Shown here: positions 1-40,139 of the stretch, piece by piece | Position numbering within the stretch: the first letter of the stretch is position 1 | Layout of the letters: each line of letters opens with the position of its first letter | Assembly: GCA_020849295.1 (NCBI GenBank) | Contig: JADLGN010000005.1 | Coordinates: 62,001 to 126,000, forward strand | DNA: 64,000 nucleotides | Source of the DNA: Bacteroidia bacterium | GTDB lineage: Bacteria; Bacteroidota; Bacteroidia; NS11-12g; UBA9320 | Direction: 5' to 3' | Notes under the pieces: generated by a model | What the model saw: the letters and a program-made list of their open reading frames with translations, nothing else | Told to the model about the DNA's origin: nothing | The model's database searches: none | Program-made: the position numbers and the translations under genes

Positions 1-1430
1 ATGGGGCAAAATCATACAGTTATTCTGATTTATCAAACGATAAAAAACTAAATTCAAAATCCGTAAAAATAGAAAACAACACAAAATCAATAAAATTCAG
101 AAGCAGAATTACCGGACATGGGCATAATAGCAACGATGGTTCATATCCTCATTGCTGCGAATGGAAAAACAACAAGCACTTTCTGTTTTCGGGAAATAAA
201 AAGATAAAAGAATGGCAAATTTGGCAAACTTTGGATTGTGCCGATAATCCGGTATTTCCACAAGGCGGCACTTGGCCCTATGCCCGTGAAGGCTGGTGCC
301 CGGGTGATAGGGTAAAAGATACAGAATTTGATATTACAAATTATAAAAACAATGACAGTATAAATTTAGATTACAGAATTACTCCAGTACCTTCTGAAAA
401 TATAGGAATGGGCAACGGAAATTATGTAATGGCTATGCACCTGATTCAATATGGTAAAACAAATTTTACAAATGATGCCGAAGTTTATGATATATTATCT
501 CCCAATTCTGCTCAGATTTTTTCAAAATTCAGCCCTTCATGTGAAGAACCCAAAATTGTTATAAGAAATAATTCATCAGATACCATGACAAGTCTTGATA
601 TTGAATATAACATTTCAGGAGGATATACTATGAAATACAAATGGAAAGGAAAACTCGGATTTTTGCAAACCGATAACGTACAACTACCCATTTTCGATGC
701 CGGTTTTTATAGAGGTGATGGTAAAAATACGTTTTCAGTAAAAATTATCAACCGAAACGGAGTAAAAGACAATTATGAAGAAAATAATATTTTGACATCA
801 AAGTTTAAAATGCCGGATATATATAAAGATAAAATTTATATAGAGTTTAAAACCAATAACAACCCAAATGAAAACAAATATATTTTAAAAGACTCACGCG
901 ACAGCATTATTTTAATAAAAGAAAATCTCACTGCAAACAAAGTATATCGCGATACTTTGAAAAATATAAAATCCGGCTGCTATACTTTCGAGCTTACAGA
1001 TGAAGGAACAGACGGACTTAGTTTTTGGGCAAATGCATCGCAGGGAGCAGGATATTTAAGGTTTAGAAAGGCTACAGGAACCACTGTTTTAAAGAATTTC
1101 GGTTCAGATTTTGGGTATAGAATTTATTATTCATTCATTATTGACAGTTTGCAAAAAGGTATAGAACCTTTCTATCCTGAACCTGAAAATGGAATATTAA
1201 TATATCCAAACCCCAGCAATGGCAACTTTACTTTAACTACTTCCGGAATTTCAGGATATTACACACTTCAAATTTATAATACAATAGGTGAAAAAATTTA
1301 CGAAAGCGAGATAAATACTGACGTAGAAACAGATAAAACAATTAACAGTGGTGAAATGTCTTCGGGATTACATATTCTAAAATTATACAACGGAAATAAC
1401 CGTTTTGTAAAAAAAATAATAATTGAATAA
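1..1430 (+). CDS. PNGase F-like protein with T9SS type A sorting domain (5' end outside window)
   Basis: The reading frame is open from base 3 to the stop at 1428-1430, giving 475 visible residues, so the gene begins upstream of the window. The TTG at 231 is not a start, because coding sequence continues above it. That upstream part contains a GHGH motif (bases 114-125), a CCEW motif (153-164) and, further on, NPVFPQGGTWPYAREGWCPG. This arrangement resembles the peptide-N-glycosidase F family, which removes N-glycans from asparagine. About 80 C-terminal residues starting at IYPNPSNGNF and ending in KKIIIE form a T9SS type A sorting domain, so the protein is probably exported across the outer membrane or anchored to the surface. 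The middle part is beta-rich and has no clear assignment. The family call rests on motifs only; whether the enzyme is active cannot be judged without its N-terminal half. Confidence 0.75.
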   Translation, partial: GAKSYSYSDLSNDKKLNSKSVKIENNTKSIKFRSRITGHGHNSNDGSYPHCCEWKNNKHFLFSGNKKIKEWQIWQTLDCADNPVFPQGGTWPYAREGWCPGDRVKDTEFDITNYKNNDSINLDYRITPVPSENIGMGNGNYVMAMHLIQYGKTNFTNDAEVYDILSPNSAQIFSKFSPSCEEPKIVIRNNSSDTMTSLDIEYNISGGYTMKYKWKGKLGFLQTDNVQLPIFDAGFYRGDGKNTFSVKIINRNGVKDNYEENNILTSKFKMPDIYKDKIYIEFKTNNNPNENKYILKDSRDSIILIKENLTANKVYRDTLKNIKSGCYTFELTDEGTDGLSFWANASQGAGYLRFRKATGTTVLKNFGSDFGYRIYYSFIIDSLQKGIEPFYPEPENGILIYPNPSNGNFTLTTSGISGYYTLQIYNTIGEKIYESEINTDVETDKTINSGEMSSGLHILKLYNGNNRFVKKIIIE

Positions 1431-1492
1431 CTAATATATTAATTTGATTTATTGACTATAATTGCAAAAGAATTAATGCTTCATCAAGTTTA

Positions 1493-3037
1493 ATGCTATT
1501 TATAAATAATTTAATAGATAAAACAAAAAACTTTCAATTCAGCAGAAGAATAAACGCAAGAAATGGACATGAATTTCAAACAAAAACATTAAAAAAATTA
1601 CTCAAAAAAGCACAGTTTACTGAATTTGGTAAATTTTATGGGTTTGATGCGATATTAAAATCTGATAATATTTGTAAAACATTTAAAGAAAAAATACCCA
1701 GTGGCGATTATATGAAAATATTGTCCTGGTGGGAAAGAAGCCGCAATGGAGAACCAAATATTACATGGCCCGGCAAAGTTGATTTTTTTGCAGTAAGCAG
1801 CGGTACTACAGATAATAGCAGCAAATACATACCAATAACCGATCAAATGCTTAAAGCCATACAACGTGGAAGTATAAAGCAGATGATGTTTATTGCTAAA
1901 ACAGATATTCCTAAAGATCATATTGTAAAAAACTGGCTAATGATGGGCGGAAGTACAGACCTTGATTTTAATGGAATATATCACTCAGGAGACCTAAGCG
2001 GTATTACTACAGTAAAAGTGCCATTTATGCTTAGGCGGATATACAAACCCGACCCCATAATAAAACGAGAAAAATATTGGCCTAATAAGATTGCAAAAAT
2101 TACGCGTGAAGCTGTAAAATGGGACGTTGGAGGAATTGCTGGAGTTCCTGCATGGATTCAGTTATTATTTGAAAATATTCTTAAACATTACAAAATATCA
2201 AATATTCACGAACTATGGCCAAACCTTGAAGTTTATGTTCATGGCGGTGTATCAATAAAGCCCTACAAAAAAAGTATAGAAAAACTTATCGGTCGTCCTA
2301 TAAAATATTTTGAAACTTACCTGGCTTCAGAAGGTTTTATTGCTTTTCAAACTCATGAAGATTCAAGCGGAATGAGGCTTTTGTTTAAAAACGGAATTTA
2401 TTTTGAGTTTGTACCATTTAATTCTGAAAATTTTGATGAAAATGGAAATATAGTTGAAAATCATGAATGTTTAACATTATTAGAAGTAGAGCAAAATACC
2501 GATTATGCATTGCTTATTAGTACTTGTGCCGGTGCATGGCGATATTTAATAGGTGATGTAATTAGATTTACTTCATTAAAAAATTGCGAAATTGAAATTG
2601 TAGGCAGAACCAAACATTTTATAAGCCTGTGTGGCGAACACCTTAGTGTAGAAAACATGAACGATGCACTTGAAAAAACAAGCTCGGAACTTGGAGTAAA
2701 CCTTATTGAATATACAGTTAGCGGTATTCCGCACAAAGATGGTTTCTTTGCTCATCAATGGTATATAGGATACGATGGAGGTTCATTAAGTGCAGATTTG
2801 GTTAAAACTACTTTAGACAATAATATAAAAATACTTAATGATGATTATCGTGTAGAACGTACATCAGCATTAAGAGATATTTTTGTTGAACTTGTGCCAA
2901 ATCATTTGTTTGTAGAGTGGATTAAGCAATATGCCAAACTTGGGGCTCAATCAAAGTTTCCTAGAGTGCTAAACGAACAAAAACTTGAAAGTTGGAAAAA
3001 TTTTGTAAAGGCACATAAATCAGAAACCTCAATTTAA
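1493..3037 (+). CDS. GH3 auxin-responsive promoter family protein
   Basis: A 514-residue protein of the GH3 family, the acyl-adenylating superfamily whose plant members conjugate amino acids to acyl acids such as auxin and jasmonate. The nucleotide-binding motif SSGTTDNSSKYIP lies near residue 100, YLASEGF near 275 and YLIGDVIRF near 350, matching the three conserved GH3 motifs. Length fits bacterial members. The ATG start has no Shine-Dalgarno sequence, as usual here. It follows the T9SS gene by 62 bases and may be its own transcription unit. GH3 homologues are common in Bacteroidota but their substrate there is not established, so a specific reaction should not be assigned. The family call is firm and the function is open. 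Confidence 0.88.
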   Translation: MLFINNLIDKTKNFQFSRRINARNGHEFQTKTLKKLLKKAQFTEFGKFYGFDAILKSDNICKTFKEKIPSGDYMKILSWWERSRNGEPNITWPGKVDFFAVSSGTTDNSSKYIPITDQMLKAIQRGSIKQMMFIAKTDIPKDHIVKNWLMMGGSTDLDFNGIYHSGDLSGITTVKVPFMLRRIYKPDPIIKREKYWPNKIAKITREAVKWDVGGIAGVPAWIQLLFENILKHYKISNIHELWPNLEVYVHGGVSIKPYKKSIEKLIGRPIKYFETYLASEGFIAFQTHEDSSGMRLLFKNGIYFEFVPFNSENFDENGNIVENHECLTLLEVEQNTDYALLISTCAGAWRYLIGDVIRFTSLKNCEIEIVGRTKHFISLCGEHLSVENMNDALEKTSSELGVNLIEYTVSGIPHKDGFFAHQWYIGYDGGSLSADLVKTTLDNNIKILNDDYRVERTSALRDIFVELVPNHLFVEWIKQYAKLGAQSKFPRVLNEQKLESWKNFVKAHKSETSI

Positions 3038-3127
3038 AAAAAACAACTCACCTACAATTTTCGTTTATTTACCTACTTATGGGTTCTATTAGCCTAATAA
3101 CTCTTGTATGAACTAATAACTCAAAAT

Positions 3128-3135
3128 TATTTTTG
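3128..3135 (+). promoter_or_regulatory. Bacteroidota -7 promoter element
   Basis: TATTTTTG fits TAnnTTTG and lies 19 bases before the ATG at 3155. A TTG at 3104-3106, 21 bases upstream, could be the -33 element. It would drive the LiaF-like, DUF4288 and two-component genes. Confidence 0.55.
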
Positions 3136-3154
3136 CACCAAAAAATAAAAAAAT

Positions 3155-3940
3155 ATGAAAATTGAAAGTGAAGATTACAAAACAAATGAAAGCGAAAATT
3201 CTAATTTAAGAAAATCAAATGGAGGAAACATAATATTAGGATTAATTATAATTATTGCAGGAGCTATATTCTTATTAAAAAATACAGGAGTGCAATTCCC
3301 TCAATGGTTATTTACATGGCCAACCTTATTAATAACAATAGGACTTGTTTCCGGAGCACGTCATTCATTCAAAAGCGGAGGCTGGTGGATATTATGTTTA
3401 GTTGGTTTGGTATTTTTGTTCAAAGACTCTATAAACGGATTAGCAATAAGTAATATAGTATGGCCAATAATTCTAATATTTTTCGGATTAATTATTATGC
3501 TAAAACCACGCAAAACATGTAATATTAAAAACAATAGATATCGCGGTTTTAAGAACTGCGGGTGCAACTCAGCTTATAACTATGACATAAATGATACAAA
3601 TGAAGATATTGTTGAATCAACAACTATTTTTGGAGGTGTAAAAAAAAATGTAATTTCAAAAAACTTTAAAGGTGGAGAAATTGTATGTGTTTTTGGTGGT
3701 ACAGAAATCAATCTGATTAATGCCGATATTGATGAAAAAGCTATTTTAGATATCACACAAATATTTGGAGGAACTCAACTTATTATTCCTTCAAACTGGA
3801 ATGTAAAATCAGAAATGACGGCTATACTCGGAGGAATAGAAGATAAAAGAAATATTAATATTTCTTCAATAGAATCAGGGAAGAAAACTCTTATAATAAG
3901 AGGAACAAGCATTTTTGCAGGTATTGACATAAAAAATTAA
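3155..3940 (+). CDS. LiaF-like membrane protein (DUF5668 plus LiaF C-terminal domain)
   Basis: A 261-residue protein with four predicted membrane segments in residues 25-120 (a DUF5668/LiaI-like region), then a soluble part from about 150 with a repeated beta motif (TTIFGGVKKNV, CVFGGTEINL, QIFGGTQLII, AILGGIEDKR) typical of the LiaF C-terminal domain. LiaF in Firmicutes negatively regulates the LiaSR cell-envelope stress system. Here the gene is followed by a DUF4288 protein and a LytS-type kinase/LytTR regulator, all on one strand with short gaps. This suggests it modulates or reports to that two-component system. That regulatory role is inference from context; the domain assignment comes from the repeats. 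Confidence 0.8.
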   Translation: MKIESEDYKTNESENSNLRKSNGGNIILGLIIIIAGAIFLLKNTGVQFPQWLFTWPTLLITIGLVSGARHSFKSGGWWILCLVGLVFLFKDSINGLAISNIVWPIILIFFGLIIMLKPRKTCNIKNNRYRGFKNCGCNSAYNYDINDTNEDIVESTTIFGGVKKNVISKNFKGGEIVCVFGGTEINLINADIDEKAILDITQIFGGTQLIIPSNWNVKSEMTAILGGIEDKRNINISSIESGKKTLIIRGTSIFAGIDIKN

Positions 3941-3949
3941 TAAAATATT

Positions 3950-4288
3950 ATGAATTGGTATGTTGTAAAAATTGTATTTGAAGTTATAAATAAAAGTAAC
4001 ACTGTTCAATTTGACGAACAAATAAGATTAATAAATGCTGGTTCGTACAATGAGGCACACAATAAAACCATAGAAACAGCCCTAAATGAGGAGTCAGAAT
4101 TTTTAGACTACAGTAATTGTAAAGTATTTTGGAAATTCAGAGCAATTTCATACATAACCAAAATAGACGAATTGCAAAGTGGAATTGAGCTTTGTTCGCA
4201 AATTGTAGAAAAAACCCCGGAAGAAAATTATCATTATATTCTTGAATTAAAACATAAAGAAATTATCAGAAAAATATCGAGTAATTAA
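3950..4288 (+). CDS. DUF4288 family protein
   Basis: A 112-residue soluble protein beginning MNWYVVKIVFEV, the characteristic start of the DUF4288 family, a small alpha/beta domain of unknown function. No signal peptide or membrane segment is seen. It begins 9 bases after the LiaF-like gene and ends 8 bases before the histidine kinase gene, so it is very likely co-transcribed with both. It may be a cytoplasmic accessory of that signalling unit, but nothing in the sequence gives a biochemical role. Confidence 0.65.
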   Translation: MNWYVVKIVFEVINKSNTVQFDEQIRLINAGSYNEAHNKTIETALNEESEFLDYSNCKVFWKFRAISYITKIDELQSGIELCSQIVEKTPEENYHYILELKHKEIIRKISSN

Positions 4289-4296
4289 AAAATAAA

Positions 4297-5337
4297 ATGT
4301 TATTTTTTTCATCATGGAACATTAAAACAAAGATTGCAGTAGTATTACTTTTTTGTTTATTAAATTTTTTACATACACTGATTGTTAATCAGCTTGGCAA
4401 TTCATTTCAGGCTTCATTTTTTGACAGTATAATAAGCAATTCTCTATTATTTTTATTTTGTAGTGCAAGTGCTAATATAATTTTCCATTATCAGCCATCG
4501 GCAAAAACTGCTTGGAAATTACTTTTATGGTGTATTATATTAGCTGTTATAATAATTGTTTTACAAAAAATAGCAATTAGCCGAATTATAAAACTTGATA
4601 GTACATTTATTCTTAATTTTGATAAAACAATACCCGTAAGATTAGTCTTTGCGTTTTTACTTATTGGTATTACAATGCTTGCAGTATGGATATGGAAATA
4701 TGCTTTGTATCAAAGCGAAAATTTGTCGAGAAATACAAAAGCCGAGCTTTTAGAAAAAGAAGCTGAACTTTCAAAACTTACTCAACAATTGCAACCACAT
4801 TTTTTATTTAATAGTCTAAATTCTATTAATTCGCTTATAAGCTCAAAACCAGAAGATGCAAGAAAAATGATACAAAAATTGAGTGATTTTTTCAGAGGGA
4901 CATTGCGAAAAAACGAAAATACATTTATAAAACTTGAAGAAGAAATAAAGCACATAAACTTATATCTAGATATAGAAAAAACAAGGTTTGGACACAGATT
5001 AAAAACAAATTTTATAATCAATCAAAAAACCGAAAATTGCATAGTCCCACATTTAATATTGCAACCATTGATTGAAAATTCAATTAAATACGGTCTTTAC
5101 GAAACAACTAATGATGTTGAAATAGTATTAAAAACAGCCTTTACAAATAATATGCTCATAATTGAAATTACCAACCCCATAGATATTGAATCGTCAAGAA
5201 ATCTTAATGGCTCGGGGTTTGGATTATCGTCAGTTTCAAGAAGATTATATCTGTTATATTCGCGAATGGACTTATTAATTACATCAATCAATGAAAATAT
5301 TTTTTCAGTTCAAATTAAGATACCTCAACAAGCATGA
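4297..5337 (+). CDS. LytS/YehU-type sensor histidine kinase
   Basis: A 346-residue membrane kinase. Four hydrophobic segments occupy residues 1-145, followed by a short coiled region and the His_kinase domain with QPHFLFNSLNSINSL (phospho-acceptor His168). The ATPase part shows an N-box ILQPLIENSIKYGL and a glycine box GSGFGLSSVSRRL. There is no periplasmic sensor domain, so it probably senses through the membrane or via the LiaF-like protein encoded just upstream. Its stop overlaps the start of the LytTR regulator by four bases (ATGA), which indicates translational coupling. A second pair of the same type is at 45618-47384. Confidence 0.9.
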   Translation: MLFFSSWNIKTKIAVVLLFCLLNFLHTLIVNQLGNSFQASFFDSIISNSLLFLFCSASANIIFHYQPSAKTAWKLLLWCIILAVIIIVLQKIAISRIIKLDSTFILNFDKTIPVRLVFAFLLIGITMLAVWIWKYALYQSENLSRNTKAELLEKEAELSKLTQQLQPHFLFNSLNSINSLISSKPEDARKMIQKLSDFFRGTLRKNENTFIKLEEEIKHINLYLDIEKTRFGHRLKTNFIINQKTENCIVPHLILQPLIENSIKYGLYETTNDVEIVLKTAFTNNMLIIEITNPIDIESSRNLNGSGFGLSSVSRRLYLLYSRMDLLITSINENIFSVQIKIPQQA

Positions 5338-6086
5338 TTAAAGCATTAATTATTGATGATGAACCATTAGCCCGACAAATTATTAAAGAGTTTTTAGTAA
5401 GCTATAATGAAATTGAAATTTTAGCAGAATGTGGAGATGGTTTTGAAGGTATAAAAGCCATAAATAGTTTCAAACCCGAATTAATTTTTCTTGATATTAA
5501 AATGCCCAAAATTTCAGGTTTGGAAATGCTTGAACTTGTAGATAAAAAACCTTCGGTGATATTTACAACTGCCTTTGATGAATTTGCATTGAAAGCTTTT
5601 GAAACCAATGCCATTGATTATCTTCTAAAACCTTTTGACAAAGAACGATTTAACAAAGCACTTGATAAATTTATGATAAATTTTAAAAGCAATTTTAATG
5701 AAAATAATACAAAAAAAATTAATGAAATTTTAGGAGAAATAAATATAAGTAATGAAGAAACTTTAAGGGTTGTTGTAAAAACAAAACAAGGAATAAAAAT
5801 TCTATATTATAATGAAATATATTTTTTTGAAGCCTTTGATGATTATGTAAAAATTAACACAAAAGATGAATGTTTTTTGAAGAAAAATACTTTGTCGTTT
5901 TATGAAAATAATTTAAAAAAAGGCGAGTTTATAAGAGTTCACAGATCATTTATAATAAATCTAAACCAACTTACACGAATAGAAAACCCTACAAAAGATG
6001 TACATACTGCCCTATTAAAAAATGGGAAAAAAATTCCTCTAAGTCGTCAGGGTTATTCAAAATTAATTACCTTGCTAAAGGTATAA
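5334..6086 (+). CDS. LytTR-family response regulator
   Basis: A 250-residue regulator with an N-terminal receiver domain (acidic pocket DDE at 8-10, phospho-acceptor Asp54 in IFLDIKMP, conserved KPF near residue 100) and a C-terminal LytTR DNA-binding domain from about 145, with the family motif FIRVHRSFIINLNQL. It is the cognate partner of the overlapping histidine kinase. LytTR regulators bind direct repeats upstream of target promoters; no obvious site was recognised here. Targets are unknown, although the LiaF-like gene in the same operon makes envelope homeostasis plausible. Confidence 0.92.
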   Translation: MIKALIIDDEPLARQIIKEFLVSYNEIEILAECGDGFEGIKAINSFKPELIFLDIKMPKISGLEMLELVDKKPSVIFTTAFDEFALKAFETNAIDYLLKPFDKERFNKALDKFMINFKSNFNENNTKKINEILGEINISNEETLRVVVKTKQGIKILYYNEIYFFEAFDDYVKINTKDECFLKKNTLSFYENNLKKGEFIRVHRSFIINLNQLTRIENPTKDVHTALLKNGKKIPLSRQGYSKLITLLKV

Positions 6087-6141
6087 TTTATTTGTAGAAA
6101 AACATTATTACAATCATATTGTCTTTATATTAAAATAAATG

Positions 6142-6149
6142 TAGGTTTG
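6142..6149 (+). promoter_or_regulatory. Promoter of the transhydrogenase operon
   Basis: TAGGTTTG fits the -7 element TAnnTTTG. TTG at 6119-6121 lies 20 bases upstream, the expected -33 spacing. The start codon at 6179 is 29 bases downstream. This is one of the best two-box promoters in the window. Confidence 0.6.
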
Positions 6150-6178
6150 CACCTCGTTTAAATAAAACCAAACACAAA

Positions 6179-7345
6179 GTGAAAATTGGTGTAATAAAAG
6201 AAACAAAAACAAATGAAAAAAGGGTAGCAATGTCGCCCTCTGTAGCTAAAAATTTAAAATCAAGAGGCTACGAAATTTGCATAGAAAGCGGTGCAGGAAT
6301 ATTAAGTTCATATAGCGACCAAGCATATACAGATTCAGGTGCTGAAATATTATCAAATACTGATGTTTTAAATAATTCAGATATTATTATAGGTATAAAT
6401 CCACCATCTGATGAATTGATAAACCAAATAGGTGAAAACAAAATTTGGATATCTCTTTTATATCACAAATCAAACAATGATTTGATAAAAAAACTTGCAG
6501 ACAAGGGTTTGACAATTTTTAGTATGGATGCTATACCGCGAATATCAAGAGCACAAAATATGGACGTTCTAAGCTCGCAGGCAAATCTTGGCGGATATAA
6601 AGCTGTAATTTCAGGTGCAAATGAATTAGGAAAAATATTTCCATTGATGATGACTGCAGCAGGTACAATTACCCCATCAAAAGTGCTTATTTTTGGTGTA
6701 GGTGTTGCAGGCTTGCAGGCTATTGCAACAGCAAAAAGACTTGGTGCAGTAGTAGAGGCAACCGACGTAAGACCAGAAACAAAAGAACAGGCTGAAAGTC
6801 TCGGAGCTAAATTTATACAAGTAGAAGAAAATAAACCTACACAAAATAATCAGTTAAAAGATACAATTATTACTCCCGAAGCTTTAAATAAATTTGAAGA
6901 GAGCAAAAGTCACGGTGGATATGCAAAAGAAGTTTCTGATGACTATAAACAAAGACAAAAAGAAGCAGTAAACAAAAGTTTAGCACAAGCTGATTTAGTA
7001 ATTACTACAGCACTTGTACCTGGCAAAAAAGCACCTATATTAATAACAGAAGAACAAGTAAAACAAATGAAAATGGGATCTGTAATTGTTGATATGGCTG
7101 CTGAACAAGGTGGTAATTGCGAACTTACACAAATGGATAAAACAATAGAGCAATATGGTGTGAAAATAGTTGGAAAAATAAATTTGCCAGGGGAATTAGC
7201 TCAGGTAGCAAGCGAACTATATGCAAAAAATATATCTGCTTTCATAGAGCATTTGACAAACAAAGATGGATTTAAATGGGAAATGGATGAAGAAATAACA
7301 AAAGCTACATTAATTGTAAAAAACGGAAAAATTTTAGTTGATTAA
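6179..7345 (+). CDS. pntAA: NAD(P)+ transhydrogenase subunit alpha, part 1 (dI)
   Basis: A 388-residue protein forming the NAD(H)-binding domain I of the proton-translocating transhydrogenase, which couples hydride transfer from NADH to NADP+ to proton entry. It begins GTG-AAA (MKIGVIKETKTNEKRVAMSP) and shows the alanine dehydrogenase/PNT fold with RISRAQNMDVLSSQANLGGYKAV near 120 and the nucleotide-binding VLIFGVGVAGLQAIATAKRLGA near 175. The subunit is split, as in Rhodospirillum: the membrane portion of alpha is the next gene, 6 bases on. The three pnt genes form one operon. The GTG start is supported by the family N-terminus. Confidence 0.95.
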   Translation: MKIGVIKETKTNEKRVAMSPSVAKNLKSRGYEICIESGAGILSSYSDQAYTDSGAEILSNTDVLNNSDIIIGINPPSDELINQIGENKIWISLLYHKSNNDLIKKLADKGLTIFSMDAIPRISRAQNMDVLSSQANLGGYKAVISGANELGKIFPLMMTAAGTITPSKVLIFGVGVAGLQAIATAKRLGAVVEATDVRPETKEQAESLGAKFIQVEENKPTQNNQLKDTIITPEALNKFEESKSHGGYAKEVSDDYKQRQKEAVNKSLAQADLVITTALVPGKKAPILITEEQVKQMKMGSVIVDMAAEQGGNCELTQMDKTIEQYGVKIVGKINLPGELAQVASELYAKNISAFIEHLTNKDGFKWEMDEEITKATLIVKNGKILVD

Positions 7346-7351
7346 AAAAAT

Positions 7352-7645
7352 ATGTTAGAATTTATTAATTCAAATATCGAAATTATATACTTGCTGTTAC
7401 TTATGATATTTGTAGGTATAGAACTTATAGAAAAAGTACCATCAGTATTACATACACCTTTAATGAGTGGTGCAAACGCAATTCATGGAGTTGTAATAAT
7501 TGGAGCCATAATAATAATGGGGCAAGCTGAAAATACCCTTGCAACTATTTTGGGTTTTATTGCTGTTGTACTAGGAACACTTAATGTAGTTGGCGGATTT
7601 GTAGTTACAGACAGAATGCTTGAAATGTTTAAAAAGAAAAAATGA
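7352..7645 (+). CDS. pntAB: NAD(P)+ transhydrogenase subunit alpha, part 2 (membrane)
   Basis: A 97-residue membrane protein with three hydrophobic helices and the family motif HTPLMSGANAIHGVVIIGA near residues 32-50. It is the alpha-derived membrane part of the transhydrogenase proton channel and assembles with PntAA and PntB in the inner membrane. It ends in KKKK and its stop overlaps the start of pntB by four bases (ATGA), so translation is coupled. Split alpha subunits of this size are standard outside Enterobacteria. Confidence 0.95.
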   Translation: MLEFINSNIEIIYLLLLMIFVGIELIEKVPSVLHTPLMSGANAIHGVVIIGAIIIMGQAENTLATILGFIAVVLGTLNVVGGFVVTDRMLEMFKKKK

Positions 7646-9042
7646 ATAATCATATTTTACAAATAATATATCTCATAGGCTCACTGTCATTTATTGTAGG
7701 GCTAAAAATGCTTAGCAAGCCAAACACTGCAAGGAAAGGAAACCTTGTAGCTGCATTTGGAATGGCTATAGCAATAATAGGTACAATATTTCTGTATGAA
7801 GGTATAAAATCATCAAATTATATATGGATTTTTGGTGGTCTTATAATTGGTTCAATACTTGGAACAGTTTCAGCAAAAAAAGTTAAAATGACTCAAATGC
7901 CAGAAATGGTAAGTCTTTTCAATGGTATGGGAGGAGCTTGTGCCATGTTGATTTCTGCTGTTGAGTTCAATCATTTAAAACATAAATATTTGAATGAAGC
8001 ATTACCACAAGGTCAAATGATAATAATAATGCTTGGATTAATAATCGGGAGTATTTCATTTGTCGGTAGTATTGTAGCTTGGGGCAAATTAAGTGGTAGA
8101 TTAGGAGATAAAACTTTAGGAATACAACAAGTTATTAATATAGGATTACTTACATTAATACTAGGATTGGCAGCATATATGATATTTTGGAGCCCATCAG
8201 AAAATGATTTATATTTTTATTCTATTTGGGCTATTTCTGCACTGTATGGAGTACTGTTTGTTATGCCTATTGGTGGCGCCGATATGCCTGTAGTTATATC
8301 ATTATTAAACTCATTTACAGGTGTAGCTGCCGCAATGGGAGGTTTTTTGTACGACAACAAAGTAATGCTTGTTGGTGGAATTCTTGTTGGTAGCGCAGGC
8401 ACTATTCTTACTGTTGTAATGTGCAAAGCAATGAACAGAAGTCTTACCAATGTATTAATAGGTAATTTTGGAGGAAATAATAATGCAAATACAACTACTG
8501 CAGCCGGTGGAACAATTCGCGAAATAAATACAGGCGATACAGCAATATTGCTAAAATACGCTTCAAAGGTAATAATAGTTCCGGGTTATGGTTTGGCAGT
8601 TGCACAGGCTCAACATGTTTGTCACGAACTTGAAGAATTGCTCGAAAATGAAGGAATAAACGTAAAATATGCAATTCATCCTGTTGCTGGAAGAATGCCT
8701 GGTCACATGAATGTATTACTCGCAGAGAGTAATGTAAGTTACGATAAACTTATTGAAATGGAAAATATTAACCCTGAGTTTGCAACTACCGATGTTGTAT
8801 TGGTTGTTGGAGCTAATGATGTTGTAAATCCTGCTGCCAAAACAGATCCTTCAAGTCCAATATATGGAATGCCTATTTTAGATGTAGAAAATGCAAAAAG
8901 TATAATAGTGATGAAACGTAGTATGAAAGCAGGTTATGCAGGTATTGAAAATGAATTATTTTATCAACCTAAAACATCTATGCTATTTGGCGATGCAAAA
9001 AATACACTTACCAAACTTATTGCAGAAGTAAAAACTTTATAG
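7642..9042 (+). CDS. pntB: NAD(P)+ transhydrogenase subunit beta
   Basis: A 466-residue subunit with eight to nine membrane helices in the first 260 residues, completing the proton channel, and a C-terminal NADP(H)-binding domain III starting near 290. The latter shows VIIVPGYGLAVAQAQH, YAIHPVAGRMPGHMNVLLAE and VVLVVGANDVVNPAA, all typical PntB motifs. The expected product is NADPH at the expense of proton motive force. It ends two bases before the stop of the convergent pnuC gene, with no terminator hairpin between them, so the two transcripts probably overlap at their 3' ends. Confidence 0.96.
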   Translation: MNNHILQIIYLIGSLSFIVGLKMLSKPNTARKGNLVAAFGMAIAIIGTIFLYEGIKSSNYIWIFGGLIIGSILGTVSAKKVKMTQMPEMVSLFNGMGGACAMLISAVEFNHLKHKYLNEALPQGQMIIIMLGLIIGSISFVGSIVAWGKLSGRLGDKTLGIQQVINIGLLTLILGLAAYMIFWSPSENDLYFYSIWAISALYGVLFVMPIGGADMPVVISLLNSFTGVAAAMGGFLYDNKVMLVGGILVGSAGTILTVVMCKAMNRSLTNVLIGNFGGNNNANTTTAAGGTIREINTGDTAILLKYASKVIIVPGYGLAVAQAQHVCHELEELLENEGINVKYAIHPVAGRMPGHMNVLLAESNVSYDKLIEMENINPEFATTDVVLVVGANDVVNPAAKTDPSSPIYGMPILDVENAKSIIVMKRSMKAGYAGIENELFYQPKTSMLFGDAKNTLTKLIAEVKTL

Positions 9043-9044
9043 TT

Positions 9045-9593
9045 TTAATTTCCTTTCATAAGTTTTTTCCATCTTAATAAACCAAAAACACCAATAAAGG
9101 TTATTATTATTGCATAAATTGATGTAGGGTAAAGTTCTTTATAATAATATACAATACACATAATTATATCTGCTATTATCCAATAATACCAATTTTCAAG
9201 TTTCCTCAATGCTGTTAAAATTTGACCACTTATACTTAATGAAAGTATTAAAGATTCAGCAATAGGATAGGTACATTTAGTATAAATTTTAAAATACATA
9301 TAAACTCCATCCCACACAAGTAAAGTAAATAACAATGCAAGTAAATTACCCAAAAATGTTAATTTTTGTGGAAAACTCGCTTTGCTGTTATGCCAGTTTA
9401 TCCAACCCCAAATACCCAAAATCAGGAAAATTATTTGAACTGCAAAATCTCCATAGAGTTTTTCATGCCAAAATAAAATAAGAAAACAAAGTATATTAAT
9501 ATAGCCTGTAACCCATGTATAAATTGAATTTCTATACAAAAGATATACAGCAATAATACCTGATATTACTCCAATCCATTCAATTATTTTCAT
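9045..9593 (-). CDS. pnuC: Nicotinamide riboside/mononucleotide transporter PnuC
   Basis: An inner-membrane protein of 182 residues with about seven hydrophobic segments and the PnuC pattern W-G-W-x-N-W (ILGIWGWINWHNS near 65), ESLILSLSISGQILTALRKLENWYYWIIADI and a C-terminal RWKK. PnuC proteins import nicotinamide riboside by facilitated diffusion; some relatives (PnuT) carry thiamine. I chose the ATG at 9593 (MKIIEWIGVISG) over the GTG three codons upstream because it matches the family start. It faces pntB, so genes for NAD precursor uptake and for transhydrogenase sit together. No riboswitch-like leader was recognised. Confidence 0.88.
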   Translation of the reverse strand: MKIIEWIGVISGIIAVYLLYRNSIYTWVTGYINILCFLILFWHEKLYGDFAVQIIFLILGIWGWINWHNSKASFPQKLTFLGNLLALLFTLLVWDGVYMYFKIYTKCTYPIAESLILSLSISGQILTALRKLENWYYWIIADIIMCIVYYYKELYPTSIYAIIITFIGVFGLLRWKKLMKGN

Positions 9594-9673
9594 TATAAGC
9601 ACAATGCAATTTATTGTTTAATAAAGATAAATAAAAAAATAAAATAAATCAGCCTGATTATTTATTTTTATAC

Positions 9674-9694
9674 AATGTAAATAACTTACATTTG
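9674..9694 (+). promoter_or_regulatory. Promoter and overlapping palindrome upstream of arginine decarboxylase
   Basis: TACATTTG (9687-9694) fits the -7 element and lies 31 bases before the ATG at 9726. It overlaps the right half of a perfect palindrome AATGTAA-ATAAC-TTACATT (9674-9692). The overlap suggests an operator for a dimeric repressor. No regulator is identified nearby. Confidence 0.45.
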
Positions 9695-9725
9695 CAAAAA
9701 ATACTTAAAGTAAGTTAATCAGATA

Positions 9726-11117
9726 ATGAAAAATAAATACATTGATTTAATCCGACAAACATTTAATTTTCCACAAGAAGAGTTTCAAATCGAAGATGAT
9801 TCTTTGATTTTCCATAATATATATCTCATGGATTTAATTAAACAATATGGCACACCTTTAAAATTTCATTATCTACCCAAAATATCCGAAAATATAAAAA
9901 AGGCTAAAATGTGGTTTAATGTTGCTATGGCAAAATGCGACTATAAAGCAAAGTATCATTATTGCTATTGTACAAAAAGCAGTCATTTTCAGTTTGTACT
10001 TGATGAGGCACTTAAAAATGACATTCATATTGAAACATCATCAGCATTTGATGTTGACATAATTGAAACACTATATAATGAGGGAAAAATAAACAAACAA
10101 CAATTTATAATAGCAAATGGATTTAAAACAGACTTGTATATTGAAAATCTATCAAGAATAATAAACGATGGATTTGAAAATACTTATCCGATTTTGGACA
10201 ATAAAAGTGAACTTGAGAGATTGATGAAAATGGTGAACAAGCCCCTAAAAATCGGTATAAGAATAGCTGCTGAGGAAGAACCAAAATTTGAATTTTATAC
10301 AAGCCGCCTGGGAATTGGGTACAAAGATATAGTTCCCTTTTATCAAAATCAGATTAAAGGCAAAGAAAATGTTGAAGTAAAAATGCTGCACTTTTTTATT
10401 AATACTGGCATAGCAGACACTTCATACTATTGGAACGAACTTCACAAGTGCCTTAAAGTATATTGCGACTTAAAGAAAAATTGTCCATCATTAGATTCAT
10501 TAAATATAGGGGGAGGCTTCCCTATAAAAAACTCTCTATCGTTTGAATACGACTATGAGTATATGGCTGAAGAAATAATTGCTCAAATAAAACAAGTTTG
10601 CAATGAAAATAATATAGAAGAGCCAAATGTTTTTACAGAATTTGGCTCGTTTACTGTAGGTGAAAGTGGAGGTGCTATTTATCAGGTTTTATATCAAAAA
10701 CAACAAAACGATCGCGAAAAATGGAATATGATTGATAGCAGTTTTATGACAACTTTACCAGATGCTTGGGCTATAAACAAAAAGTTTTTGATGTTACCAA
10801 TTAATCTATGGGACAAAAATTACGAAAGAGTTTTACTTGGCGGACTTACATGCGATAGTGATGACTATTATAACTCCGAACAACATGTGAATGCTATATA
10901 TTTACCAAAAATCAGTGATGACGGACCTTTGTATTTAGGATTTTTTAATACCGGGGCATATCAGGAAAGTGTAGGTGGTTATGGCGGAATTCAACACTGC
11001 TTGATACCTGCTCCAAAACATATAATTATTGAAAAAGATAGTGAAGGGCAAATTACTACACGAATTTTCTCCAAAGAACAAAGCTTTAAAAGCATGTTAA
11101 AAATTCTTGGATACTAA
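9726..11117 (+). CDS. speA: Arginine decarboxylase (Bacteroidota type, PLP fold III)
   Basis: A 463-residue PLP enzyme of the alanine racemase/ornithine decarboxylase fold, closely following the short arginine decarboxylase of Bacteroidota (MKNKYIDLIRQTFNFPQEEF, then YHYCYCTKSSHF with probable PLP Lys84). Further conserved parts are IRIAAEEEPKFEFYTSRLGIGY near 175, the GGGFPI loop near 260 and LLGGLTCDSDDYY near 380. It lacks the large insert domains of the 630-residue E. coli SpeA. The product would be agmatine for polyamine synthesis. It stands alone, with a promoter and palindrome upstream. The substrate is assigned by family resemblance; diaminopimelate or ornithine decarboxylase is less likely. 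Confidence 0.85.
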   Translation: MKNKYIDLIRQTFNFPQEEFQIEDDSLIFHNIYLMDLIKQYGTPLKFHYLPKISENIKKAKMWFNVAMAKCDYKAKYHYCYCTKSSHFQFVLDEALKNDIHIETSSAFDVDIIETLYNEGKINKQQFIIANGFKTDLYIENLSRIINDGFENTYPILDNKSELERLMKMVNKPLKIGIRIAAEEEPKFEFYTSRLGIGYKDIVPFYQNQIKGKENVEVKMLHFFINTGIADTSYYWNELHKCLKVYCDLKKNCPSLDSLNIGGGFPIKNSLSFEYDYEYMAEEIIAQIKQVCNENNIEEPNVFTEFGSFTVGESGGAIYQVLYQKQQNDREKWNMIDSSFMTTLPDAWAINKKFLMLPINLWDKNYERVLLGGLTCDSDDYYNSEQHVNAIYLPKISDDGPLYLGFFNTGAYQESVGGYGGIQHCLIPAPKHIIIEKDSEGQITTRIFSKEQSFKSMLKILGY

Positions 11118-35321: not shown

Positions 35322-36365
35322 TTAGTTACTAATTATTTCCTTAAGCTTTACAAAATCAATCTTTTTATAACATTCATTAATTTGGGGCAAATTTCCTGAA
35401 AAAGTAATTCTAACACAATATGGGTTAACCCAAGGTTTGGGCAATTCGTTTTTGTTGTTATATAATCTACCGATATATGCTATAAAAGTTGGGTAACTGC
35501 TATATTGAAATTTATCAGATTTTTTGTACATATCAAAATATATACAGGCAAAATCGCATCCCGGTATGTTTATTTCTTTATAATAGAACCCGTTTTTATT
35601 TTTTAATTGTTGTAAATTATTTTTTTCGCTATTAAGTAAAGGCGTATTTGTTGTAATTAAAAGGTCAGATTTTAATGAATAAGAACAACCATACATAGCA
35701 TGTAGTGTGTCATCACTTATTGTTTGTGATTTTTCATTTTCATCACCCATCGTTTTTATTCGCTTACTTTTTTCTTCAATTTCTGCAAGTTTTCTTTCAT
35801 CTATATTGCTCATGTCCATATTTTCTATTTCCTTTTGCAATTTTTCCATTTCCTCTTTAAGTTTCTTTTCATTGCCTGTGGCAGAGTTTCTTCTTTTTTC
35901 ACTAATTGAGATTATTAACTTAGATAAGCTATCATCTATATTATGTTTTTTTAAATACGACTCTGTATTTTCTATCAATTCAAGACTTATTTTGTGTTCG
36001 TACTGAAAGTGTTCTCCTGTATTTGGATTATGAGAATAATAACAAGTTACACATTTACTGCCATTTGCTTTACTTTCCTTTTGCTTTTGCGGATCGAATG
36101 CAAAACTCATATCATATATACTGGTATTATAGTCGCCAGGGTTTTCTATTAAGTTTTTGCTGGCAGCTATTATAATCTTGTTCGTTCTGGCGAGTACTAT
36201 TCTGTCTTGTTCGCTGGTATTATAACTCCAGCCCCATTCGGGGTCTTGAAATAATTCACCTGTATAGGTGAATCCTGTTGGTTTATGAACTTTTTGAGAA
36301 ATTGCAATATCTATAAAGATTAAATTAAACAATATCAAAAAGCTGAATAATTTAAGATTAATCAT
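35322..36365 (-). CDS. Secreted protein of unknown function with a coiled-coil middle
   Basis: From the ATG at 36365 it has 347 residues (MINLKLFSFLILFNLIFIDIAISQ signal peptide); the TTG six codons earlier is less likely. A CVTCYYSHNP motif near residue 105, a Glu/Lys-rich coiled coil (about 160-215) and two more cysteines in MYGCSYSLKS and PGCDFACIYF are visible. I do not recognise the family. It lies 46 bases after the OmpA-family gene on the same strand and could share its transcript. No membrane segment or sorting domain is seen, so it is probably periplasmic or surface associated. Confidence 0.7.
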   Translation of the reverse strand: MINLKLFSFLILFNLIFIDIAISQKVHKPTGFTYTGELFQDPEWGWSYNTSEQDRIVLARTNKIIIAASKNLIENPGDYNTSIYDMSFAFDPQKQKESKANGSKCVTCYYSHNPNTGEHFQYEHKISLELIENTESYLKKHNIDDSLSKLIISISEKRRNSATGNEKKLKEEMEKLQKEIENMDMSNIDERKLAEIEEKSKRIKTMGDENEKSQTISDDTLHAMYGCSYSLKSDLLITTNTPLLNSEKNNLQQLKNKNGFYYKEINIPGCDFACIYFDMYKKSDKFQYSSYPTFIAYIGRLYNNKNELPKPWVNPYCVRITFSGNLPQINECYKKIDFVKLKEIISN

Positions 36366-36411
36366 AATATTTTTATTAAACAAACTCTGTTATATTAAAA
36401 GCTAAGTCTGC

Positions 36412-37434
36412 TTAAATTTTAATAAACTCTACTCTCCTGTTATCTGCTTTTCCTTCAGAAGTATCATTACTGCTCGAAGGTTTTGATTCTCCATAGCCTT
36501 TTGATTTCAATCGGGAACCATCTACACCTAATGAAACTAATAGTTTTCTAACTGCCTCGGCTCTTTGTTCTGATAGTTTTAAATTTGACGCATCGTCACC
36601 ATCACTATCTGTATGGCCTCCTATTTCAAGTTTTATTGTTGGATTCTCTTTTAACCATTTGCCGAGTTCATTTATAAATCCCATACTTTCTCCCTTGATT
36701 GTTGATTTTCCTACATCAAATTTTATTGCATGTGAAACAAATTTCCCATCGGTAAGTATTTTATTAAGCATATTCATTCCTCCCCCATCCGCTAATTTAA
36801 AATTCTTAATTTTTACATTAAGCGAACCACCCATATACAATTTTATCGGGTCAAACTCACAATCAGGTATTACAAGTACTCTATGTTGGTCTATATAGCA
36901 TTTTATTTGTTTGTTCTTAAATGCAAATGCTGCATGATGCCATTTGTTTATCAATTTTTCGGCATCTGGAATTTTACCTTCTAAACCTTCTGCAAAATAA
37001 TTCGGTTTCAAAATCCCGTTTGAAGGTTCAATTGAAATAAATTTTTCATCATCATCACTTAGTTTAAAAATTAGTGACACTACTTCTTCTGTAGGTATAT
37101 TAAAGTCAAATTCTAATGTAAATGCGTTGCCTAAATAGCTTTTTGTTTTGATTCGAGGTTCTATTTTCCCTATATTTCCCCAAGAACAGTCGTAAAATAA
37201 AAAGTATTTTTCATTTTCATTTGAATTTATTACACCTTGCCCTGAAATTAATTTCCATCTCTGTGGAAATTCTCCATTTAAGGCATCGTGTAAATCATCT
37301 TCAAAAAGCACTTTTTCTCCGGGAATAAAATCATAATTATTATACACTTTAAGATCTTTGTTGTCTTGTGAGTATAGAATATTATTCACTAAAATCAAAC
37401 AAACAGGCAATAGAATTTTTATTGGATTTTTCAT
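36412..37434 (-). CDS. OmpA-family outer membrane protein
   Basis: A 340-residue protein with a signal peptide (MKNPIKILLPVCLILVNNILYSQ), a laminin-G/concanavalin-like N-terminal domain (about 40-215, with LEFDFNIP and HHAAFAFKNKQIKCYID) and a C-terminal OmpA domain (about 230-340). The peptidoglycan-binding signature IGGHTDSDGDDASNLKLSEQRAEAVRKLLVSLGVD and the ending ADNRRVEFIKI are clear. It would anchor the outer membrane to the cell wall. Its promoter element lies 18 bases upstream. Confidence 0.9.
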   Translation of the reverse strand: MKNPIKILLPVCLILVNNILYSQDNKDLKVYNNYDFIPGEKVLFEDDLHDALNGEFPQRWKLISGQGVINSNENEKYFLFYDCSWGNIGKIEPRIKTKSYLGNAFTLEFDFNIPTEEVVSLIFKLSDDDEKFISIEPSNGILKPNYFAEGLEGKIPDAEKLINKWHHAAFAFKNKQIKCYIDQHRVLVIPDCEFDPIKLYMGGSLNVKIKNFKLADGGGMNMLNKILTDGKFVSHAIKFDVGKSTIKGESMGFINELGKWLKENPTIKLEIGGHTDSDGDDASNLKLSEQRAEAVRKLLVSLGVDGSRLKSKGYGESKPSSSNDTSEGKADNRRVEFIKI

Positions 37435-37547: not shown

Positions 37548-37751
37548 TTACCTCATCAAATGTAATGTCACTTTAAAAAACTGTATCTGCCTGTAGTTTC
37601 GTGTGGCGTGTATGCTGTAAAAATATATTTCTGTTTAGGCAGTTTTGCCGTTTATCTGTCCATTCCATGGGGTGCTGCTACTGTAAACCATTTCGCCCCA
37701 GAGATTGAATATATTTAATGTAAGCTCTCTATTCCAATCATTGCAGGTTCA
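37548..37751 (-). pseudogene. Remnant of a T9SS type B sorting domain
   Basis: The frame reads NDWNRELTLNIFNLWGEMVY, then SSSTPWNGQINGKTA, an in-frame TAA (37635-37637), then TEIYFYSIHATRNYRQIQFF and KVTLHLMR with a final TAA at 37548-37550. The order of IFNxWGExVY, PWNGxxNGK, YFYxI and a terminal VTLxxR matches the type B (gliding motility associated) C-terminal domain of T9SS cargo proteins. The rest of that protein is absent: an in-frame stop lies just upstream at 37749-37751. This appears to be the decayed end of a former large cargo gene. Confidence 0.7.
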
Positions 37752-37776: not shown

Positions 37777-38052
37777 TCATACAAACCAATCATTCGTTTG
37801 CTCGAAATCTTCGATTACAATTACTTCTTCTTCTTGTTAAAATTGTTCAAAGTATTCTTTTGTGTTTTCGTAAACAAATTTGTTATAGATATTATCACGA
37901 GTAGGAACAAAAATTCTTGAAGGTTCAATTCCTTTGTAACAGTTTCTATTGGTTAAATAATGATGAAAACCTCGCAAATATTGACTTTCGGTTTTTATTC
38001 GTTCGATTAATGGCAATAATTCATTTGTGAGTGTTTCATATTTCAAATTCAA
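37777..38052 (-). pseudogene. Unassigned reading frame with an internal stop
   Basis: A frame open from a stop at 38059-38061 reads LNLKYETLTNELLPLIERIK ... NKFVYENTKEYFEQF (71 codons), then TAA at 37837-37839, and continues in the same frame as QEEEVIVIEDFEQTNDWFV to TGA at 37777-37779. Its only possible start is a TTG at 38052. The protein-like composition on both sides of the stop suggests a fragment of a former gene with a nonsense mutation. No family was recognised, and it may be only the end of a longer lost gene. Confidence 0.4.
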
Positions 38053-38061
38053 ATCTTTTTA

Positions 38062-38528
38062 CTACTTGGCGAAGTAAATGAGTCTGTTTTCAGAATATAC
38101 AGTAACTATGGATTAACTCATTTGGAGATAGCTGAAAAAATTAAAAACGGACTATATATTGAAAACATTTTAAAACGCATTCAAAAATGTGGATGGCGGT
38201 TATAATTTGGTTGGAATGCATGGGTATGGGCATAGCTTTGCTTTCGTTATTTGCAATTCTGTCGGAATCTGTCCTTGGTTTTATTGCAAAGAGGACTAAA
38301 TATTTGTAGTAGTTAGCGAAAGGCTGTCAATTCACACAATCACTTAAACTTATAGAATATAAAATATTGGAATAATATAAAGCTATCTATTGAACGGAGC
38401 AGGGAGTATTTCTATAAAGCCATGGTGTAGCAATGTGTGTTGGCTGAGTCTTTCATTTATCTCCAAATAAGCAAACACTAAATTATTAAAAGAATTAAAA
38501 ACGGTTTTAAACAAACTTTGTAAAAAAA
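38062..38528. other. Gene-poor stretch with no supported gene
   Basis: About 470 bases with no gene I can support. On the plus strand a 54-codon open frame (38041-38205) includes SNYGLTHLEIAEKIKNGLYI, which could be a helix-turn-helix fragment but has no start codon. A block at about 38390-38460 is richer in G and C than its surroundings and could be structured RNA or a dispersed repeat; I cannot identify it. No terminal repeats or target-site duplications were seen. Confidence 0.4.
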
Positions 38529-39068
38529 TTACCTATTAGCTTTATGTTTCTCCTTAATTAAACTTTTGTATGTGTATAATTTAGAGAAAACGAAAGAAAG
38601 CTTTATATACCAGGAGAATCCATGACTTCCATTGTAATTTTTTAATACATTGGTTGCTAAGCCAATTGACGTATCAAAATCTATTTTTCCCATTGGAACA
38701 GAACAACCCATCCCCATCATTAACAATGCCTTATTTTCTTGTTCCTGAGTAGTCAACTTTGACTTGAAAACTTGACCTGAAATATCCATTAAAGGTTTAG
38801 GTCCGGTAGTTCTATTTAAAATAAACCTTGATGAAAAGTCAAATCCAATAGTCATATAATTGGTATCATATTTAATTAATGGGCCTATAGAAAAATTAAA
38901 GCCAGAATTCCTTTTTAATTGTATTGAAGGAGAAAATCCTAATGAATTACTTTCATATGCAATCCCTGATATTTTAATTCCAATTGACGTTACGTTTGAA
39001 TTGGTATGCTGACCATTTAAATTGTTTATAAATAATAATAATACAATAGTAGCTAATTTAGAACGCAT
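38529..39068 (-). CDS. Small predicted outer-membrane barrel protein
   Basis: From the ATG at 39068 it has 179 residues: a signal peptide (MRSKLATIVLLLFINNLNGQ) and amphipathic strands such as FNFSIGPLIKYDTNYMTIGFDF and GFSWYIKLSFVFSKL, typical of a small barrel. The open frame extends 44 codons further upstream, but that part lies in another frame over the decayed gene at 39079-39747, so it is not coding. It starts 10 bases after the stop of that gene and was probably its operon partner. Function is unknown. It is the only intact gene of the 37.5-40.1 kb region. Confidence 0.65.
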   Translation of the reverse strand: MRSKLATIVLLLFINNLNGQHTNSNVTSIGIKISGIAYESNSLGFSPSIQLKRNSGFNFSIGPLIKYDTNYMTIGFDFSSRFILNRTTGPKPLMDISGQVFKSKLTTQEQENKALLMMGMGCSVPMGKIDFDTSIGLATNVLKNYNGSHGFSWYIKLSFVFSKLYTYKSLIKEKHKANR

Positions 39069-39078
39069 CTTATTATCA

Positions 39079-39747
39079 TTAAATACCAAGAGAACCCCAC
39101 GCTGATGCAGAAGTGGCGTAAAATGCTGCAATGCCGAAATTTCGCCAGCTTGTACTACTTTCTTTGCTGTCTTCAGACCAAAAACTATCAACATTGCCAT
39201 TATTTAAATAAAAGAACCAAAACACAAAAGTTACTGTATCAACAAACGGGTCAAAATTAGCACGGTATGGATACCAAGGGTCTAAAGGATTAGCATCAGC
39301 CGCAGCCCAATATGTATTACTGTATATAGCAATAGCACATCCTGCTAATAATACAGATGATTCTTCTGGTGTTAGTAGTGAGTTTAATATATCTTCTTGT
39401 AAGGTTTCGAAATATCAAACGGGTGGTGGATTATCACTATTTAGCAGTCGAATTAAAAAGTCAAGTTGTAACCCATTAAAATTTGACTTAGCGATTATCA
39501 AATCTTTTAAAGTGTATGAAACACTACCCGGCGAAATATAAAAATTTGCTGTATTATATGCTTTACCAGCCATCATTTTTGATTTAATCTAAAAATTAGG
39601 GGTTGAATCATCACATTGAGTAGCCCATGAATCTGCCAATATATCTATTGCTTCTTCAATTGTCGGAGATGGGTTTGTTGTTATTAAATTAGTTAATAAG
39701 CTATTGTGAAACTCGCCAAGAGGATTATAAGGATTAATGACTGGCAT
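39079..39747 (-). pseudogene. Gene of unknown family broken by two in-frame stops
   Basis: Starting at ATG 39747 (MPVINPYNPLGEFHNSLLTN), one frame runs 222 codons to TAA at 39079-39081, interrupted only by TAG after STPNF (39549-39551) and TGA after NPPPV (39415-39417). There is no frameshift, and the sequence stays protein-like (TYWAAADANPLDPWYPYRAN; NFGIAAFYATSASAWGSLGI). The intact product would be about 220 residues with hydrophobic stretches late in the chain. TAG and TGA are used as normal stops elsewhere, so a different code is not likely. A recent pseudogene is the simplest reading; readthrough or base errors are alternatives. Confidence 0.65.
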
Positions 39748-40139
39748 AGTTTATGAATTTTAATCAAAATTGCATTAAAATAATTACAATTATTTGTAAT
39801 TATTTTACAATATCGCCCTAAACGAAAAGAAAAGAGTAAGCGAATAGTTTTATTCAAAGTTATCTTTGAGGTTAAATAAAACTCAAATGTCTTGTCCTAA
39901 AAACGGATTTTAACTACAAAGTGAAAAATGGTATAAATACACATATTTAAGAGTTAATTTTTAATCTTAAAGTTTATGTCAGGATTTAAGTGTTTAACTG
40001 TAAACTTTTTTAAGAAGAGTTACTATTACTCAACTTTATTTATTGATGAAATTCTATTAATATAAAATAAAAAACAAATTTGTATTGTATTGTATTTATA
40101 AAAATCATAATTTCGCACACTTTTTAAAGAAAATTTCAA
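39748..40139. other. Intergenic region with inverted repeat, otherwise nothing recognised
   Basis: About 390 AT-rich bases between the broken minus-strand gene and rpmE2. It contains the 30-base inverted repeat listed separately. The sequence CATAATTTCGCAC (about 40107-40119) resembles a degenerate -7 element for rpmE2. No gene, tRNA or riboswitch was seen. Confidence 0.5.
39777..39806. repeat. Perfect 13-bp inverted repeat
   Basis: AAAATAATTACAA (39777-39789), a four-base spacer TTAT, then TTGTAATTATTTT (39794-39806). It lies 30 bases upstream of the start of the broken gene at 39747. It may be an operator or an AT-rich hairpin; in the plus direction the T run is short. Confidence 0.6.

What the first reader, a model, noticed from the sequence alone, without database searches (positions are those of the whole stretch)
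39079..39747. A 222-codon gene interrupted only by TAG and TGA
Two nonsense codons, no frameshift and strong protein-like sequence throughout. It sits 10 bases upstream of an intact barrel gene. Nonsense-only damage in three nearby frames with three different stops is unusual; options are recent pseudogenes, deliberate silencing in a diversifying locus, readthrough, or mixed populations in the assembly.
Basis: seen in the sequence. Interest (0 to 1): 0.55.

Follow-up and report, generated by a model that had tools for sequence, protein, structure and literature searches.

The report
Dead gene in a gene graveyard
A bacterial gene broken by two premature stop signals is a decaying relic in a stretch of gene debris; its living relatives form a family not found in the main protein-family databases, some of them sitting beside enzymes that make modified antimicrobial-type peptides.

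Summary
In detail: one reading frame (39747-39079, minus strand) encodes 222 codons and is interrupted only by TAG and TGA. A profile built without this gene or its two closest relatives recognises it across both stops (76 bits), so it was once one protein. Two same-family genomes carry intact homologues (34-44% identity). In one of them (G013) a distant relative of the downstream gene follows at 1 base. Both stops fall in columns that vary across the family, and TAG and TGA are ordinary terminators in this window. The surrounding 2.3 kb holds other debris: a type IX secretion tail with an in-frame TAA, a frameshifted purF fragment and the 3' end of another gene. A pseudogene, probably fairly young, is the best reading; 'nonsense-only' is unremarkable. 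The protein belongs to a Bacteroidota family with no Pfam or NCBIfam model: an N-terminal domain of about 160 residues joined to exchangeable C-termini, including lanthipeptide-like cores beside LanB and LanC. That family, not the stops, is the more interesting result. Reads were not available, so strain mixture or error at the two codons is not excluded.

The parts
39079..39747 (-). Interrupted frame: ATG, 222 codons, terminal TAA; pseudogene of the 'NPY...YW' family
39589..39591 (-). In-frame TAG (codon 53)
   Evidence: aligned column is variable in the family
39415..39417 (-). In-frame TGA (codon 111)
   Evidence: aligned column is variable in the family
38529..39068 (-).
   Evidence: (E 1.4e-5); no Pfam or NCBIfam match; barrel fold not shown, model pLDDT 40
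39776..39807 (.). Inverted repeat upstream of the start codon (possible operator)
   Evidence: self-match on the opposite strand
37578..37748 (-). Remnant of a type IX secretion C-terminal domain (CHU_C), with an in-frame TAA and no N-terminal part
   Evidence: Pfam PF13585 28.7 bits, cut-off 27; frame
37780..38058 (-). Protein-like frame with one TAA; no relative in the 57 other genomes searched
38066..38338 (+). Frameshifted internal fragment of purF (name from recall of the sequence)
   Evidence: 73-75% nucleotide identity to the purF ORF of G003, G004 and G006, 66-70% to those of G001, G002 and G005; frame change visible
38338..38382 (+). 3' end of an unrelated gene, joined directly to the purF fragment
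   Evidence: 96% identity in G003:C86 and 90% in G002:C3

Best explanation
The frame is a pseudogene. A gene of a Bacteroidota-wide family, paired in an operon-like way with the small gene after it, was probably acquired or kept as an accessory pair, lost its function, and picked up two independent nonsense substitutions while drifting in a debris-filled gap between an OmpA-family gene and the L31 gene. Translation should stop after 52 codons. The middle piece could restart at the two ATGs at codons 58-59 but stops at codon 110. The last 111 codons contain no ATG, only a GTG at codon 175. Shown: the frame, the stops, the homology across both stops, intact relatives, and the debris. Inferred: that the product is not made, that the loss is fairly recent, and that the living protein is an exported bacteriocin-like or RiPP-precursor-like product.
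For: Homology spans both stops. Intact relatives are G013:C6 and G006:C5, and in G013 a distant relative of the downstream gene follows at 1 base. The pair of gene and downstream gene occurs only in G000 and G013 of 58 genomes, so it is accessory. The target keeps 16 of 21 family-conserved columns, against 18 and 19 of 21 in the two intact relatives, and both stop columns are variable. Neighbouring debris. In the loci fetched around L31 from the six other genus members, none holds this gene or the downstream gene beside L31, and S1 is not next to L31 in any of the six. Of 50 ORFs of at least 110 codons in the window, 40 end in TAA, 6 in TGA and 4 in TAG. Start codons in the frame.
Against: No reads, RNA or second strain. 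No frameshift in 666 bases and still good coding statistics, so decay is not advanced. The downstream ORF is intact, but at the target's rate zero stops in 179 codons has a probability of about 0.20, so this says little. Selection could not be measured, because the nearest relatives are only 34-44% identical.
Confidence: 0.85

Rival explanations
1. Strain mixture or consensus error: the population holds intact alleles and the assembled consensus caught stop-bearing reads.
For: The genome is a 55-contig assembly. Damage is limited to two substitutions with no frameshift.
Against: Two independent false stops in one gene of a 99.99% complete, 0.1% contaminated assembly would be a coincidence (figures). 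The flanks hold clear decay of other kinds.
Confidence: 0.08
2. Programmed readthrough or recoding makes a full-length protein from this frame.
For: Both sides of each stop are still protein-like. A relative in the same genus, G005:C185, has a TGA just before a Gly-rich tail with no frameshift.
Against: Stop positions are not shared between copies. Apart from the own copy, only G005 and G222 of 37 copies had a stop in the matched stretch, and the G222 one comes from a frameshift. TAG and TGA end ordinary genes in the window. No aligned relative has Cys at the TGA column.
Confidence: 0.03
3. Silenced cassette in a diversifying locus, restored by recombination with another copy.
For: In the family member G109, two neighbouring copies are 94.9% identical over 693 nt and then have unrelated C-termini, and a third orphan fragment lies beside them.
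Against: The own genome has a single copy and no donor.
Confidence: 0.03

Closest known systems
Bacterial nonsense pseudogenes in accessory regions
   Same: Intact homologues elsewhere, premature stops, neighbouring fragments, patchy distribution
   Different: No frameshift yet; a family without a database model
Class I lanthipeptide precursors of Bacteroidetes (LanA with the LxLxKx5L leader motif; motif described in PMC7268733, passages read)
   Same: Family members G140 and G455 carry that motif, or a near match to it, followed by a Cys-rich end, next to LanB and LanC
   Different: Their motif follows an N-terminal region of about 238 residues; the target and its two nearest relatives have no motif, no Cys in the last 60 residues and no such enzymes recognised in the sequence seen around them
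Grasp-with-spasm peptide system (TIGR04192/TIGR04193)
   Same: Member G255 lies beside both maturases
   Different: No such enzymes were recognised in the window (ORF list, read by eye)

Membership tests
Pseudogene | Homologous frame interrupted, with intact relatives elsewhere | tested here: met
Pseudogene | No functional product made | not testable with these tools
   needs RNA or protein data
Pseudogene | Stops present in the reads | not testable with these tools
   no reads available
'NPY...YW' family (my working name) | Match to a profile built without the target's clade | tested here: met
   76.0 bits, E 5e-22, best shuffle E 0.21
Class I lanthipeptide precursor | LxLxKx5L-type leader and Cys-containing core | tested here: not met
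   target: no motif, 0 Cys in the last 60 residues
Class I lanthipeptide precursor | LanB and LanC nearby | tested here: inconclusive
   none recognised by eye in the window ORF list; the window was not scanned by profile
Recoded (selenocysteine or pyrrolysine) protein | Recoded residue conserved at the stop column | tested here: not met
   both stop columns are variable

The most novel reading that the evidence does not exclude
The broken gene is a dead member of an undescribed Bacteroidota family of precursor-like proteins. In it a conserved N-terminal domain of about 160 residues carries exchangeable C-terminal cargo (Gly-zipper tails, Cys-rich ends, class I lanthipeptide-like cores), acting as a giant leader or export domain for RiPPs and bacteriocin-like products, with a small partner gene downstream.
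Probability: 0.45. Interest if true: 0.55.

Novelty: new member of a known kind. Interest (0 to 1): 0.27.

Why it matters
The stops themselves are ordinary gene decay. The masked search, though, exposes a family with no Pfam or NCBIfam model whose members sit in complete-looking lanthipeptide clusters (LanB, LanC, precursor) and beside grasp-with-spasm maturases. If the long N-terminal domain is a leader, miners that look for short precursors would overlook these peptides.

Tried and rejected
Plasmid, viral-contig and genome-contig searches with the masked protein found no relative. PHROGs gave only weak, inconsistent matches. Search of solved structures with the family profile: best E 0.099, not meaningful. 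Structure predictions of target and downstream ORF from single sequences had mean pLDDT 40.2 each, so no fold search was made. A resemblance of one Cys-rich tail (G109) to phospholipase A2 is recalled only; Pfam found nothing in it. NF038153 (lanthipeptide leader) scored 16.2-16.3 bits on two relatives, below its cut-off of 22. The third nearby frame, 37780-38058, found no relative in 57 other genomes, so whether it was ever a gene stays open. One tRNA in the window, tRNA-Asn, no suppressor; only the window was scanned. Paper searches: 'grasp-with-spasm' 0 papers (with Bacteroidetes also 0); lanthipeptide + Bacteroidetes + 'long leader' 0; one search counted 20 papers, 18 and 17, of which I saw only the listings. 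PMC7268733 and PMC10352776 were read as found passages only. 'Undescribed' rests on these searches and the family libraries alone.

Full report
What is there. On the minus strand, 39747-39079 reads ATG, 222 codons and TAA, with TAG at codon 53 (39591-39589) and TGA at codon 111 (39417-39415). Shuffles preserving dinucleotides never reached so few stops (0 of 5000; mean 11.0 in the best frame), and the codon statistic favours this frame in all three segments. The ATG of the next ORF is 10 bases after the TAA.

It was one protein. Masked at the stops, it finds G013:C6 (44% identity) and G006:C5 (37%), both without stops, among 58 genomes including its own. Local tblastn on the fetched loci gave 36% and 34% over longer stretches. 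With wider profiles the family appears in 5 of 108 genomes of the order, 15 of 395 of the class and 16 of 395 of the phylum. These counts include the own genome, and G006 is in two of them. A profile from 14 relatives, built without the target, P0001 and P0002, gives the target 76.0 bits (E 5e-22). Two of its stop-bounded pieces score 37.5 and 28.6 bits; the best of 2000 shuffled decoys has E 0.21. The target keeps 16 of 21 conserved columns, its intact relatives 18 and 19.

Why pseudogene. Both stop columns are variable in the family. TAG and TGA end 10 of 50 ORFs of at least 110 codons in the window, so they are not reassigned. The own genome has no second copy. Around it lie a CHU_C type IX secretion tail with an in-frame TAA (PF13585, 28.7 bits, cut-off 27), a frameshifted purF piece and the last 45 bases of another gene. 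The neighbouring gene pair 35322-37434 is present in G001 in another place. In the six other genus members S1 and L31 are not neighbours, and the fetched L31 loci lack the target and the downstream gene; the G005 contig is only 3.8 kb, so that one is a weak negative.

Nonsense-only damage. Depending on the transition weight, 4.0-5.2% of single substitutions in this frame make a stop. For 0.02-0.2 frameshifting indels per substitution (assumed, not measured), the first two lesions are both nonsense with probability 0.52 to 0.03. The intact downstream ORF is not evidence of selection: P of zero stops is 0.20 at the same rate.

The downstream gene. It finds only itself and the ORF after the G013 homologue among 58 genomes (E 1.4e-5; 24% over 160 aa). 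In G005 the ORF after the relative shows a marginal match (29% over 83 aa, pairwise E 0.001). In G006 no such gene follows.

The family. Members share NPY...G..H near the N-terminus and a YW motif roughly 130-150 residues later, then differ. Several end in Gly-rich tails (for example G140 first copy, G013:C19). In G140:C79 and G455:C40 the protein continues to an LxLxKx5L-type motif at residue 239 (strict in G140, with final F in G455) and an end with 5 and 4 Cys in 60 residues. 24 of 5000 shuffled proteins contain the strict motif by chance. Both lie with LanB (PF04738 441.9 and 412.2 bits) and LanC (PF05147 168.9 and 142.3 bits, the latter on a partial ORF). The leader model NF038153 scores below cut-off. 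In G255:C163 the neighbours are the grasp-with-spasm ATP-grasp and SPASM proteins (TIGR04192 274.7 bits, TIGR04193 326.5 bits). In G109:C94 two copies are 94.9% identical over 693 nt and then unrelated, with an orphan fragment beside them, which looks like C-terminal exchange. None of the members scanned matched a Pfam or NCBIfam model over the shared domain above its cut-off.

Other damaged copies. Of the 37 copies other than the target, the tool flagged a stop in the matched stretch of 2: G005 (TGA before the Gly tail) and G222, where the N-terminal part lies in another frame. G013:C19 also has its N-terminal part in another frame. That makes at least 3 of 37; not every copy was checked outside its matched stretch. 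These are independent losses at different places.

Limits. Reads, transcripts and strains are not available. Age and selection could not be measured at this divergence.

Noticed in passing
L093 (G140:C79) 2773-9825; L092 (G455:C40) 821-8171: Class I lanthipeptide clusters (LanB, LanC) whose precursor carries an N-terminal region of about 238 residues before the leader motif.
   Followed up: partly
L095 (G109:C94) 1543-4651: Tandem family copies, 94.9% identical over 693 nt, with unrelated C-termini and an orphan fragment: apparent C-terminal exchange.
   Followed up: partly
L094 (G255:C163) 3548-6589: Family member next to grasp-with-spasm ATP-grasp and SPASM maturases.
   Followed up: partly
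window 38066-38382: purF fragment closer to G003, G004 and G006 than to the purF of G001, joined to the 3' end of a gene 96% identical in G003: possible transfer within the genus before decay.
   Followed up: no
L023 (G005:C185) around 1804-1806: In-frame TGA just before a Gly-rich tail, followed by a possibly related downstream gene, in a relative from the same genus.
   Followed up: partly
window 39776-39807: Inverted repeat upstream of the target start, operator-like.
   Followed up: no
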